Shown: positions 9,507-14,400 of the stretch, piece by piece
How positions within the stretch are numbered: position 1 is the first letter of the stretch
Layout of the letters: each line of letters starts with the position of its first letter
Origin: Gracilaria vermiculophylla
Taxonomy: Eukaryota > Rhodophyta > Florideophyceae > Gracilariales > Gracilariaceae
Direction of reading: 5' to 3'
Assembly: GCA_019155205.2 (NCBI GenBank)
Contig: JAHNZQ020003150.1
Coordinates: 554,777-618,776 of the forward strand
DNA length: 64,000 nt
Notes under the pieces: generated by a model
What the model saw: only the letters and a program-made list of their open reading frames with translations
What the model was told of the DNA's origin: nothing
Databases searched by the model: none
Made by a program: the position numbers and the translations under genes

Positions 9507-10928
9507 GACAGTCACGCCGTGTGGCAAATTAGATTGCATGCGGCGGTCACACAGCCATGGAGCATTGACAAGCAGGTGACCGTTCATCCATCGAACGGCG
9601 GGGGGTGCCGTTCTTTAACCACAAAGAGACGGAGGCGTTGGTCGTCGTCGTTCACTACCATGTGGGTCTGTCATTTCCTTCACGGTGTTAGTGCGTCTAC
9701 CGTCTTGGTGCTTACCTCCTTGCCCCGCCCAATTGCGGCGCACCCCGAACGGTTTTGTTTGTCGTTGCTGATTATAAGCTACCGGGTTTTGGAAAGCACG
9801 AACCTGGTGGTCGGCGAAGTGGTGGCTCCAGCGAGGCCCGCGCCAGTGGTAATTGTGTGGGACTATCGCTCTGGTTCGGGTGCGGTGTTCAGCCGCTGAA
9901 CGCGCTCATCCGTATGGAGGAGAAACCAGCTCGTTGGGTTCATCGACCGCCCCCATCCGTTTATTTTCACGAGTTGTGGGTCACACGCTCGATGAGACAT
10001 GGCCTCCAAAGGAGCAGGGATGTAACCCCCGCCGCGCAGGATGCTCGCTCCGTGGAGCGGCGCCCGCATACAAGATGGATCTGTGGAGAGGGCACGCGAC
10101 TGCCACGGTGTGAGCACGGCCTCACGCTGGCTGGACATTTTCGAAATACCCGTTGGCGATGACGCCCCCGTGGTGGTGGATACTGTTTTCACCGACCTTT
10201 TACGTGATGCAAACAAGCCCGGGGGAGGGTACGTAATGCTGGATCCTGAATCAATCATCGGCTTTATCCGTCACACCACTACCCTCGCTATGTCTGGTTG
10301 CGGCTCGCAAGCTCTCGCGGTTTTTCAACGCCGTACCCCCGTGGCGGGGCGGGTTCACTGGTTTCTTCGATAACGATCCCGCTGCCGTCTTCGTACACCG
10401 CGCCCGACGCCTTGGCTCGTTATCCTCCTGACTATGGTACCGAGGACCCTTACCCGTTGGTGACGGAGCAGACCATACGGTGTCCCTCCGGCGAATATGC
10501 AAGCGTGGGTATTGGAGACAACGTCATGGTCGATATCGGTGAACTCGACCGCACTCGGGTCGCTCGTAAAGCAACCTGAGTTTGTGGTGTACACCTCATG
10601 CGCCAGATAGGATAGCCATCGTATGGAAGCAGTGCCGAGTAAGCCACTGTTGCCGGCCAAGGAGAGCTAGGGGCGTCCTGGGCGCCACGTCTGCTTCCAT
10701 CATTGGCGCCTGAATTCATCGTTCCGGTTTTTCGTCTCAACCGATATCCCGAGCGACTTGCCTTACCTCCGGTGCTAACCCGAGTTCCATTATTTCCGGA
10801 AACTCGTAGGTATCATGCACCAGCGTGTCAAATGGAACTCGTGGTTACCCTTCAACGCGGGCCGAGGGGCTCTGGATGCTCCGTATGATTGGATTCATTG
10901 GACAGACCAAAATCGATGGGGGACCGAT

Positions 10929-11007
10929 TGTTGGAAAACAGATGAGCTATTTGCGCTATACTCTCTTGTGACACAGGGCGCACAGTTCACCATTTGAACT
11001 ATCAACA
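10929..11007 (-). repeat. TRIM 3' LTR (79 bp)
   Basis: Left direct repeat. On the minus strand the purine tract at about 11009-11020 immediately precedes it. Confidence 0.9.
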
Positions 11008-11144
11008 AGCCCCCTCGCCCTGTAATTACTTACAGAACGAGACCTTGAGCTTACAGTAGCCAATCTTCACTACTGCTGTACACCTGTACAATTTCTCAGG
11101 CTCAGGTCACTTCTGGGAATTGAACCCAGGGTCCTAGCGTTTAG

Positions 11145-11160
11145 CTGGGCCCATAACCTG
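11145..11160 (-). promoter_or_regulatory. TRIM primer-binding site
   Basis: Minus-strand GGTTATGGGCCCAGC lies directly after the 5' LTR (the LTR and site share about two bases at 11159-11160). It is the same half-tRNA-iMet site as in Copia1 and Copia2. The following interior (about 11108-11130) contains CTGGG-TTCAATT-CCCAG, a perfect T-arm-like hairpin whose loop fits the tRNA T-loop pattern. Confidence 0.85.
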
Positions 11161-11237
11161 TTGGAAAACAGATGAGCTATTTGCGCTATACTCTCTTGTG
11201 ACACAAGGCGCACAGTTCACCATTTGAACTATCAACA
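11159..11237 (-). repeat. TRIM 5' LTR (79 bp)
   Basis: Right direct repeat; a single A/G difference from the other LTR near the CACA(A/G)GGCGC segment. Confidence 0.9.
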
Positions 11238-12909
11238 CCGATGGCGCTACTGAGGCGCGTAACCGCTCGCGGAACAGTGCGGTCCAGCCCATGCATGGTT
11301 TCCATAGAACTTAGTTCTTTTCACAGTCTACCGCGGAGCGTCGTCGTTGGCACACCGTACGACCCAGTTGGTGGCAAAGGTTTAGAGTACCCCGTTGCTT
11401 ATTTGTTCCGACGCCACCGGTCTTGGTGTATTTCGTAAGCTTCGTAACCCGTAACCCCGAAGGCTTCTACCATGCGGTATAGAGCATCGCCTTGTCAGAA
11501 TGGGAAGTTCTGGTAGCCATTTTGTCTCGATTTGCTGTCCGTGACAGTATTTCCTGGAACAGTCGCTGCCCGGACCAGGATATCAACATATTTGGGTACT
11601 TTCCACCTGATTGGCTGTTTCGGCACACCCCCGGTACCATCGGCGTGATATACCGCATCGGTTTGGATCTGATTGTCGACGACACTGAATTCACGGTTCA
11701 CCAGTTGGAGGTCTATCGTACCGCATAGGCAGGTTTCAGGTGGAATTCCAACCAGTGATTTAAAGTGTTGGATATTGAGAAGTCAGTTGTCACCAGGCAA
11801 CGTAATTTGCCTGGAGATGTGCTCCGTCGTAAGGGCGCGCCATCATTTGCCCGTGAGGTGCATATTCTTGAGGGAGCTACTCCATTTGTGGTGACCACGG
11901 CTACATCCCAAGCCGGTGCGAGCGTACCGATGATCCAGGTACAGCACTCGGTTCCGCCTCCTCTTTGGGCCTTACTTTTGCAGCCACTGTCGGTGAGCCC
12001 CTCACCCGTCGGTGGAGGGGAGCTGTTGACTGAAACGGCCATTCCTGGTGCGCTGATGCATATTCAGTGGAAATGCACTACGCGTCTGAGCTTCACCCGT
12101 CTACAGAATTTGCACGAGGCGCTCACATCCTTGGAGCACCTGATTCCTCGACAAGCCGATTATGTTATTACGCTAAACCTTTTGGTGAAGTTTCGGAACG
12201 AGTTCCAGGCGGTGGTATGTCGCGCGGTGACCGAGCAGGTATCAACCCCAAGTTAGATAGTGGATCACACCGATACGGCGAGCGATCCAGTGCTTGAGAC
12301 CACGATGGGACCCTGTTTGGCATCCAACGTTGGGTACCCCGTGGATGATGTCGTTATGCCATCAACGTTGCTGCTCATGCATGAGGCTTCGTCTGGATCG
12401 TCCGAGGGTCTTCCTCCGTAGCCGCCCGGCTCACAGAGATCGGCTCCACATTAGTCCTCTGCTGGGAACTTTGCGGCGCAGACATCTTCCGGTCATCTTG
12501 ATACTAAGGCAGGCCCTGACGGAGTGGTATCCATTCCAGGTTCCAGTCCCATGGCTTAAGACCTTCTTGATTAGAGTTCTTAACCTGTTTCGGTAGCGAG
12601 TGGCTCCCAATGAATCTTGTGTTCGCCCGATGTACTCGTCGTGTTTTTCTATATGGCACCCCTAAGGTGTTTTGGATAGCTGAGTTGGTTAATGTGGGCT
12701 AGTTCCAGATGGCGTCCACTACCTTCTCCTTAGCATACATGTCTCACATGCGGCCTTAACCATCAATCGGTATCGTTTCCCTGCCTTTGCGCCAGTAGCG
12801 TATGTGGAAGCGGCGCGGGATATGGCTGAAAGGCTCCATCGCATCGTGCTCGCGGTACTACCCATACCACCGAATAAGGTAACGCAGGCCGATAGGGCTG
12901 CGTTCGTGG

Positions 12910-14400
12910 CTAAAGATGGTATCGTTGGCGTGTTTCGTCAGCTCTGGGACGTGTAGGCGCGTAGGGGCATCTGCCTGGGGTGGAGAGCTCCATCACGTAG
13001 TTCCAGCTGGAACCAAAGATGATAATGTCCACCTGCGTGTGCGGTGGAGGGGAGCGGGGTTCAATGCGAAGCGAAGTGGCAGGGGCCGCATCGATTGCAG
13101 TCGCCTTGCTCGTGCCCGAAAGGCCGGGCGCGTGTCGGGATGGGTCTAACGAGATGCGGTCGATAGAAATGGCAGACTCCAGACCATCGATGAGCACCGT
13201 TATGGTTTGGTCCTTCACGGCCAGGACCTGATACGGTCCGAAGGAGCGTGGAAGGAGTTTTGAGCAAATATCGTTGAAGACATCGATATCGTCCTTCTGT
13301 TCCGACAGTGTCGGTCGACGAACACCGGGTGGTACATCCATAAAGACGTAGTTATCTTTAGTCACCGTCGTGGTGCGATGAATCGATCGGTCATTTTGGG
13401 CCTTGTATCGTCGTTGTGCTTCAATCAAGTGACTCGTGGACATCTAAAGGGCAGAGGGCACCTTTTGGAGGATATTGCGCTTTGCCTGGGCCGGCGTAAA
13501 CGCACTCGGGGGTGCGATGGTGCCCGTTCCTGGTTCAAGGACAAGAACATGGGGTGGTTGTGATAGGTTGAGGTCGAATGGTGTGGTCTGGGTGGAGTGG
13601 TGAACCAGAACGTTGTACGCATAAGTCAGGGGCTGCAAGTACTTGGCCTAACTCGTTTCGTGGTCTTCGACATACTCTCGTAGGCGAGCCATTAGGTTTT
13701 GTTTGACTCGTTCCCCCTGTTCATTGGTTCGGAGGTTGTAGGCAGTACTTTTTCACGCCAAACATGGCGCATACCGCTTCGGAAAACTTTGATCGGAGTT
13801 TGGAGCCTTTATTGGTCAGAAGCTACACCAGGGTGCCATATGAGTACACCCAGTGAGATAAGAAAACTTCACCCAGTACCGCGGAGGTTGTTCGCTTCAG
13901 TGGGATAGCCCGCATGAGCTTCGTAAGTGGATCAGTGATATCCATGAAAAACTGATATCCACTCGTGGTTTTTGGCAGGGGCCCTTGGATTTTGATAGCG
14001 ACGAGCTCTAGGGGTCCCGTCGCTGGGAAGATTTTGAGATACTTTCGGTGCTTTCGGAGACCGCTCGGATTTTGACCAATGAAGCGCACTGAGCGACGTA
14101 GGTATAGACGTCGTGGGCTCTGTGGGGCCAGTAGAATGACCTTCGTAAAGTGTAGTACATCCTCGTGGCTCCCAGGTGGCTAGCTAATCATGGGTAGTGG
14201 GACAGATACATCATCTTGTGGCGTAGGGATGCCGGCACAACCTTCTACAGGCAGCCATCCAAAACAATGCGGCGAACGATATAACCCTGGTGGCCAAGGT
14301 CGAACGACGATCCTCTCATTCCCAATTGGTCAGCTAGGGACTTGCAGTGTGCATCAGTGCTTTGAGCCTGCAAAATCTCCTCATGGGTGATCGACGCAGT
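12910..14400 (-). pseudogene. G2 integrase
   Basis: On the minus strand a worn zinc-binding region (14200-14400) precedes the core (13823-14089). The core shows GPLELVAIKIQGPLP-like and MDITDPLTKLMRAIPL, matching Gypsy integrases; in intact enzymes the first motif carries the catalytic Asp, here seen as I-K. The C-terminal domain is open at 12910-13443 (177 codons) with the Gypsy pattern KLLPRSFGPYQVLAV followed by a Ser/Pro-rich tail without a chromodomain. Stops and shifts separate the parts. The stop at 12910 overlaps the end of the opposite-strand frame. Confidence 0.72.

What the first reader, a model, noticed from the sequence alone, without database searches (positions are those of the whole stretch)
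9519..12956. A 3.4-kb coding-like region on the opposite strand of a complete Gypsy element
G2 is delimited by paired LTRs, PBS, PPT and a near-matching target duplication, so the + strand frames between integrase and 3' LTR belong to it. They read as globular protein, converge with the integrase and end in a 47-bp tail-to-tail overlap. Antisense ORFs between pol and 3' LTR are known in some plant Gypsy elements (Grande, RIRE2). An equivalent in this lineage, with no family I recognise, could be a new accessory or regulatory gene.
Basis: partly seen in the sequence, partly recalled or inferred. Interest (0 to 1): 0.75.

Follow-up and report, generated by a model that had tools for sequence, protein, structure and literature searches.

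The report
Conserved reverse-strand gene in Gypsy retrotransposons
A group of Gypsy retrotransposons carries, behind its integrase and on the opposite DNA strand, an extra protein gene that natural selection has preserved; the copy in this window is a broken old relative, and what the protein does is not yet known.

Summary
The core of the finding is right. The window element belongs to an old, decayed Gypsy family. Its segment between integrase and 3' LTR recurs elsewhere in the genome, aligning unbroken into pol in several copies. It holds an antisense (+ strand) gene at 10041-12574: ATG kept in 13 of 14 sequences, TAG in 7 of 10; the integrase stop lies at 12756-12758 on the other strand in 8 of 9.

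A transcriptome protein led to a younger, abundant family in the same genome whose antisense ORF is open over about 700 codons in a few copies. Its dN/dS has median 0.34 in 21 pairs. It lies tail-to-tail with a chromodomain integrase in 26 of 26 listed pairs.

Pfam and PDB sequence searches gave only chance-level matches. Corrections: the start is 10041, not 9519; the 47-bp overlap is an artefact of decay; a 309-bp insertion splits the window copy.

Antisense genes in this place are known (plant Grande, RIRE2, Retand; fungal Boty), so this is a new variant of a known kind. A deletion subfamily lacking the protein's core shows that the core is dispensable in cis. Function, fold and host are undetermined.

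The parts
8946..9491 (-). 3' LTR of the minus-strand element; edges from cross-copy alignments
9493..9505 (-). polypurine tract beside the 3' LTR
   Evidence: read by eye
9492..10040 (+). leader between 3' LTR and the antisense start codon; coding strand unsettled
10041..12574 (+). antisense gene, decayed in this copy; ATG kept in 13 of 14 sequences, TAG in 7 of 10
10761..11776 (+). part homologous to P0001 and to the 698-aa ORF of the younger family (interrupted by the insertion)
10929..11237 (.). 309-bp insertion with 79-bp terminal direct repeats, not part of the gene
12756..14011 (-). integrase and its C-terminal chromodomain-like end; stop at 12756-12758 in 8 of 9 sequences
15412..15849 (-). 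reverse transcriptase fragment (E 0.00099, below the Pfam cut-off)
16343..16907 (.). insertion of a dispersed repeat, skipped by several copies' alignments
18165..18986 (-). 273-aa ORF in the gag position; no Pfam match
20000..20545 (-). 5' LTR copy; 81.5% identical to the 3' LTR over 325 bp
20538..21027 (-). second, partial LTR copy in tandem

Best explanation
The segment is the decayed copy of an accessory gene that belongs to a lineage of Gypsy elements and lies antisense to gag-pol, tail-to-tail with the integrase, between it and the 3' LTR. Shown: it is part of the element; its + strand frame is conserved; a related abundant family in the same genome has it open over about 700 codons in some copies and under purifying selection, strongest at residues 71-420, followed by a proline-rich linker and a C-terminal tail that are less constrained. 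Inferred: it is transcribed towards the integrase from a promoter in the 3' LTR or in the roughly 500-bp leader, and makes a protein that helps the element in trans. The most likely role is regulation or handling of the element's RNA or DNA (transcription, RNA export or integration), as proposed for plant antisense proteins and known for retroviral HBZ (recalled). The confidence below is for the conserved antisense gene; for the regulatory role alone I give about 0.45.
For: Recurs at other sites at 65-76% (first half) and 68-81% (second half) identity. Start, stop and integrase stop conserved. Frame test and stop test. Transcriptome ORF P0001, 263 aa, 41% identical, E 1.8e-59. P0001 matches 145 places (145 of 420 candidates scored). 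The 698-aa ORF matches 64 places (64 of 1111 candidates scored), the 63 others at 70-85% identity. 26 of the 64 have a listed integrase within 4 kb, and 26 of 26 are opposite and tail-to-tail, median gap 248 bp. dN/dS 0.23-0.60, median 0.34, in 21 pairs of 7 ORFs, against median 0.525 in 10 pairs for the integrase C-terminal part. Frame z 18.8, index 0.38. The element ends beyond the gene: 39 of 39 other long matches of the leader-plus-LTR query stop at its position 1012-1019 (40 of 2068 candidates scored).
Against: Loci for dN/dS were chosen for open frames, which favours low values. Of the 63 other matches only 3 lack internal stops. The mirror frame on the other strand also scores (z 16.7), as shared third positions predict, but holds 19-24 stops. 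Outside the ORF two control stretches are not silent: one leader frame reaches z 3.6 and one frame of the gap between ORF and integrase z 4.4. A deletion subfamily lacks residues about 38-445 and still spread. The strand of the RNA behind P0001 is unknown. No fold (mean pLDDT 30.3). N-terminal homology between the two families is not supported.
Confidence: 0.87

Rival explanations
1. The antisense stretch works as RNA: an antisense transcript that silences or tunes the element, with the open frame as a by-product.
For: Antisense transcripts of retrotransposons with no protein are described in the review PMC7264820 (passages). No protein function is known here. Some short-gap copies lost the core and still spread.
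Against: Amino-acid-level conservation: dN/dS median 0.34 in 21 pairs, frame-specific signal z 18.8, and protein similarity to P0001 from another source.
Confidence: 0.06
2. The antisense protein is structural, a second capsid-like or membrane-associated protein, and not a regulator.
For: Large size, conserved globular-looking core, proline-rich linker; one hydrophobic stretch reaches a 19-residue hydropathy mean of 1.9 in L038, 1.7 in L039 (elsewhere in the chain), 1.5 in L040 and 2.05 in P0001.
Against: No signal peptide seen by eye; antisense position is unusual for a structural gene; no Pfam or PDB relative by sequence.
Confidence: 0.2
3. A captured host gene or a nested foreign element that happened to land in this orientation.
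For: No similarity to other element genes was found.
Against: Shared by two families 23-43% similar to the same outside protein, uniform strand and spacing (26 of 26), inside the element's edges.
Confidence: 0.05
4. The open frame is a shadow of a sense-strand gene such as env.
For: The mirror frame also shows synonymous bias (z 16.7); weak minus-strand signal at about 9.7-10.2 kb in the window family.
Against: The mirror frame holds 19-24 stops in 7 of 7 ORFs; the longest minus ORFs at 9.9-10.8 kb have index about 1.0.
Confidence: 0.02

Closest known systems
Antisense ORFs of plant Gypsy elements (Grande gene23, RIRE2, Retand with the TRP28 domain)
   Same: Antisense to gag-pol, between pol and 3' LTR, conserved across copies, role unknown, regulatory role proposed (PMC11963269, passages; PMC7264820, passages and section 5).
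   Different: No TRP28 match; the integrase here carries a chromodomain, whereas Retand is described as non-chromovirus.
brtn, antisense gene of Boty elements of Botrytis and Sclerotinia (Zhao 2011, not read; known here through PMC7264820 and PMC8365987)
   Same: A non-plant antisense gene between pol and 3' LTR (passages of PMC8365987).
   Different: Sequence relation not tested: the brtn sequence was not at hand.
HBZ and other retroviral antisense genes (mentioned in PMC11963269; details recalled)
   Same: Antisense gene towards the 3' end, with a promoter in or near the 3' LTR (inferred here).
   Different: No sequence comparison was made; retroviruses are another lineage.
Chromoviruses (chromodomain Gypsy elements)
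   Same: Integrase core plus chromodomain in the younger family; the matching end is also in the window copy.
   Different: An antisense gene is not among their defining features as I recall them; no RT tree was made.

Membership tests
Antisense accessory ORF between pol and 3' LTR (aORF-3R) | ORF antisense to gag-pol between pol and 3' LTR | tested here: met
Antisense accessory ORF between pol and 3' LTR (aORF-3R) | present and conserved in most copies of a family | tested here: inconclusive
   Conserved where present, but 6 of 12 integrase-leader pairs have a shortened gap and all lists were capped
Antisense accessory ORF between pol and 3' LTR (aORF-3R) | antisense transcription | tested here: inconclusive
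   P0001 is an ORF of an assembled transcript from another source; the strand of the RNA is unknown
Retand TRP28 antisense protein | TRP28 domain, PF04195 | tested here: not met
   No match in 10 of 10 members of A3 at E up to 1, nor in 4 proteins at E up to 10
Retand TRP28 antisense protein | element of a non-chromovirus lineage | tested here: not met
   Chromo domain, E 3.8e-7, in the integrase ORF of L043; no RT tree
Boty brtn | sequence similarity to brtn | not testable with these tools
   sequence not available here
Chromovirus | chromodomain at the integrase C-terminus | tested here: met
   L043; homologous end in the window at 12932-12786, 43% identity, E 2.5e-6; no Chromo hit for the window ORF tested
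Chromovirus | place in the RT tree | not tested
   no RT tree was made
Env-like third gene | sense orientation | tested here: not met
   opposite strand in 26 of 26 listed pairs
Env-like third gene | signal peptide and transmembrane segment | tested here: inconclusive
   one stretch at the border of transmembrane hydropathy; signal peptide judged by eye only

The most novel reading that the evidence does not exclude
An undescribed family of antisense accessory proteins, older than the split between two Gypsy families and shared with at least one other eukaryote, that works in trans, so that deletion derivatives without its core still spread by using the protein of full-length copies.
Probability: 0.35. 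Interest if true: 0.68.

Novelty: new variant of a known kind. Interest (0 to 1): 0.55.

Why it matters
In the papers seen here, antisense genes behind pol are described mainly in plant Gypsy elements and in one fungal group, without a known function. Here is an abundant chromodomain lineage with an antisense protein of its own, whose conserved core is mapped, together with natural deletion derivatives of that core. That makes it testable within one genome whether such genes are needed and whether they act in trans. It also shows that annotation that reads one strand of an element will miss such genes.

Tried and rejected
Rejected: the start at 9519 and the 47-bp overlap. Minus-strand ORFs of up to 286 aa at 9.9-10.8 kb: the longest has an index of about 1.0; some minus frames at about 9.7-10.2 kb reach about 0.7 and stay unexplained. 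An N-terminal similarity between the two families seen by eye: profile comparison gave probability 0.1%. The central-domain profile comparisons are partly circular, because A3 holds two members of A2; the independent evidence is. Structure: P0001 with three window fragments gave mean pLDDT 30.3, so no fold search was made. Protein search with a 319-aa fragment: none of 2045 candidates. Search with A3: one 130-aa protein, P0002, E 3.3e-27, 52% identical over 15% of the query, among 7996 scored. Viral contigs: no relative in two scans. Pfam: chance-level matches only (E 0.14, E 0.22 for 1 of 10). PDB by sequence: best E 0.43 and 0.64, none. Splicing as the cause of the deletion subfamily: the junction lies in a 10-bp direct repeat that also offers GT-AG on the antisense strand, but a microhomology deletion is simpler.
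Full report
What was checked. The finding claims a 3.4-kb coding-like region on the + strand of a minus-strand Gypsy element, between integrase and 3' LTR. The window lies in an unnamed 44.8-Mb genome of 27 contigs at C21:554777-618776. In the window alone the claim is weak: the + strand ORFs of the segment are at most 163 aa, minus-strand ORFs of up to 131 aa overlap them, and the five + ORFs tested have no Pfam match.

The segment belongs to the element. Searching the genome with 9500-10920 gave 15 matches including the window itself, and with 11240-12960 gave 18 rows including itself. 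I fetched 17 stretches around these places. In several of them alignments run from the 3' LTR edge through the segment, and from 11238 on into pol; other copies have gaps in the segment (L021, L024, L031) or end early. The stretch 10929-11237 is missing at this point where the two alignments of a copy abut: it is a 309-bp insertion with 79-bp end repeats, copies of which lie elsewhere in some of these loci. A jump from 16342 to 16908 marks another insertion.

The reading frame. In 150-bp bins the strand with fewer stops is + in 9 of 12 bins from 10700 to 12500, and minus in 31 of 50 bins from 12500 to 20000, with 13 plus and 6 ties. A test of synonymous against non-synonymous single changes gives z 8.3, 6.2 and 7.8 for the + ORFs of 288, 319 and 280 aa at 11570-12571, with an omega index of 0.61, 0.70 and 0.61, better than any other frame there and like the best pol ORFs of the same copies (0.57 for a 282-aa minus ORF). 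Between about 9500 and 10570 neither strand wins clearly, and + ORFs at 10570-11750 have an index of about 0.8 to 1.1. An ATG at 10041 is present in 13 of 14 sequences, a TAG at 12572 in 7 of 10, and a minus-strand stop at 12756-12758 in 8 of 9, the window counted in each. The younger family's integrase matches the window at 14011-13111 and, in another frame, at 12932-12786. The gene is therefore 10041-12574, tail-to-tail with the integrase and about 180 bp from its stop. The window copy carries several in-frame stops.

Relatives. A profile of eight fragments (A2) found one protein, P0001, 263 aa, an ORF of an assembled transcript from EukProt, 41% identical, E 1.8e-59. P0001 matched 145 places in the window's genome (145 of 420 candidates scored): 12 rows of the window family at 34-43% identity and 133 others at 23-32%. 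Eight of the others were fetched, chosen mostly for open frames. Their antisense frames run to 698, 698, 713 and 630 aa from a start codon (TTG in the tool's listing, with an ATG within the first 10 or so residues), and to 597, 563 and 577 codons stop to stop; one of 757 codons spans withheld bases. The 698-aa ORF finds the window family by tblastn (L030 E 3e-16, L021 5e-13, window 10761-10925 E 1e-4). The profile of the 698-aa members found one more protein, P0002, a 130-aa relative of the N-terminal part.

Arrangement. The 698-aa query gave 64 scored matches of 1111 candidates; of the 63 others, 3 have no internal stop and the rest 1 to 9. An integrase of the same family gave 104 scored matches of 1584. 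Because both lists are capped, only 26 of the 64 have a listed integrase within 4 kb; 26 of 26 are on the opposite strand and tail-to-tail, with a median gap of 248 bp. Of the 133 other P0001 matches 39 have one, and 38 of 39 are opposite and tail-to-tail. The sequence beyond the ORF start ends at a common edge in 39 of 39 other long matches, and 6 of the 15 shorter rows hold just its last 550 bp or so, as an LTR would. The integrase has rve and chromodomain matches.

Selection. Among 7 antisense ORFs, 21 pairs give dN/dS 0.23 to 0.60, median 0.34; the integrase C-terminal part of 5 loci gives 0.32 to 0.70, median 0.525, in 10 pairs. Along the protein pN/pS is 0.57 for residues 1-70, 0.21 to 0.43 for 71-420, and 0.56 to 0.89 beyond; one locus (L043) is frame-shifted in the tail, which inflates the last. 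Over the ORF the frame scores z 18.8 with index 0.38; four of the five other frames score negatively and the mirror frame z 16.7, but the mirror frame holds 19 to 24 stops in 7 of 7 ORFs. Controls: the LTR's best z is 1.7; one leader frame reaches 3.6 and one frame of the gap between ORF and integrase 4.4, which I do not explain; the integrase part reaches 3.5. The loci were chosen for open frames, so the ratios are somewhat optimistic.

A natural deletion. Of 40 leader matches, 12 have a listed integrase on the same strand: 6 at 2384-2389 bp and 6 at 959-1361 bp. The two short ones fetched (L046, L047) share a breakpoint that removes residues about 38-445, the whole core, and keep the start and the proline-rich and C-terminal parts. 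The junction is a 10-bp direct repeat. Such copies spread, so the core is dispensable in cis; it may be supplied in trans or not be needed.

What it does. No Pfam family above chance, no PDB relative by sequence, no usable fold. Hydropathy shows one stretch at the border of a membrane segment. By position and orientation it resembles the antisense genes of plant Retand, Grande and RIRE2 elements, for which a regulatory role has been proposed (PMC11963269, passages; PMC7264820, passages and section 5), and brtn of Boty (same review; PMC8365987, passages). It lacks TRP28, so it is not a member of the Retand protein family. I take a trans-acting regulatory or RNA-handling role as most likely, at about 0.45, by analogy only.

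Literature. Eight searches were answered and one failed. PMC5348765 on oomycete retrotransposons was seen in passages and names chromodomain elements there with an extra RNase H, but no reverse-strand gene in what I saw. In the listings I noticed no antisense gene in a chromodomain Gypsy lineage; whether Boty counts as one was not checked. The library holds open-licence papers only, so this is no proof that none is in print.

Noticed in passing
L046, L047 and the pairs: A deletion subfamily with one shared breakpoint lacks the conserved core of the antisense protein; the junction is a 10-bp direct repeat that also offers GT-AG on the antisense strand.
   Followed up: partly
window 10929-11237: 309-bp repeat with 79-bp terminal direct repeats and a tRNA-like B-box stretch judged by eye (ARAGORN found no tRNA); copies lie in several fetched loci. 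Possibly a miniature terminal-repeat element.
   Followed up: partly
window 8259-8757, 16343-16907, 47039-47564, 50107-50656, 52439-52986: Dispersed repeat of roughly 500-560 bp at 73-88% identity, in places as inverted halves.
   Followed up: no
window 9700-10250: Some minus-strand frames show a weak signal of constraint (index about 0.7) where the antisense leader and start lie; assigned to no gene.
   Followed up: partly
window 1033-2520 and 3928-4668: Copia-type element: gag-polypeptide match PF14223 in the first ORF and, read by eye, a reverse transcriptase ORF in the second.
   Followed up: no
window 31486-33303: 605-aa ORF with a very long glycine run and repeated segments; no Pfam match.
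   Followed up: no
window 57749-58717: 322-aa ORF with a putative cyclase domain, PF04199, E 2.7e-21.
   Followed up: no
window 20000-21027: Two LTR copies in tandem at the 5' end of the element.
   Followed up: no
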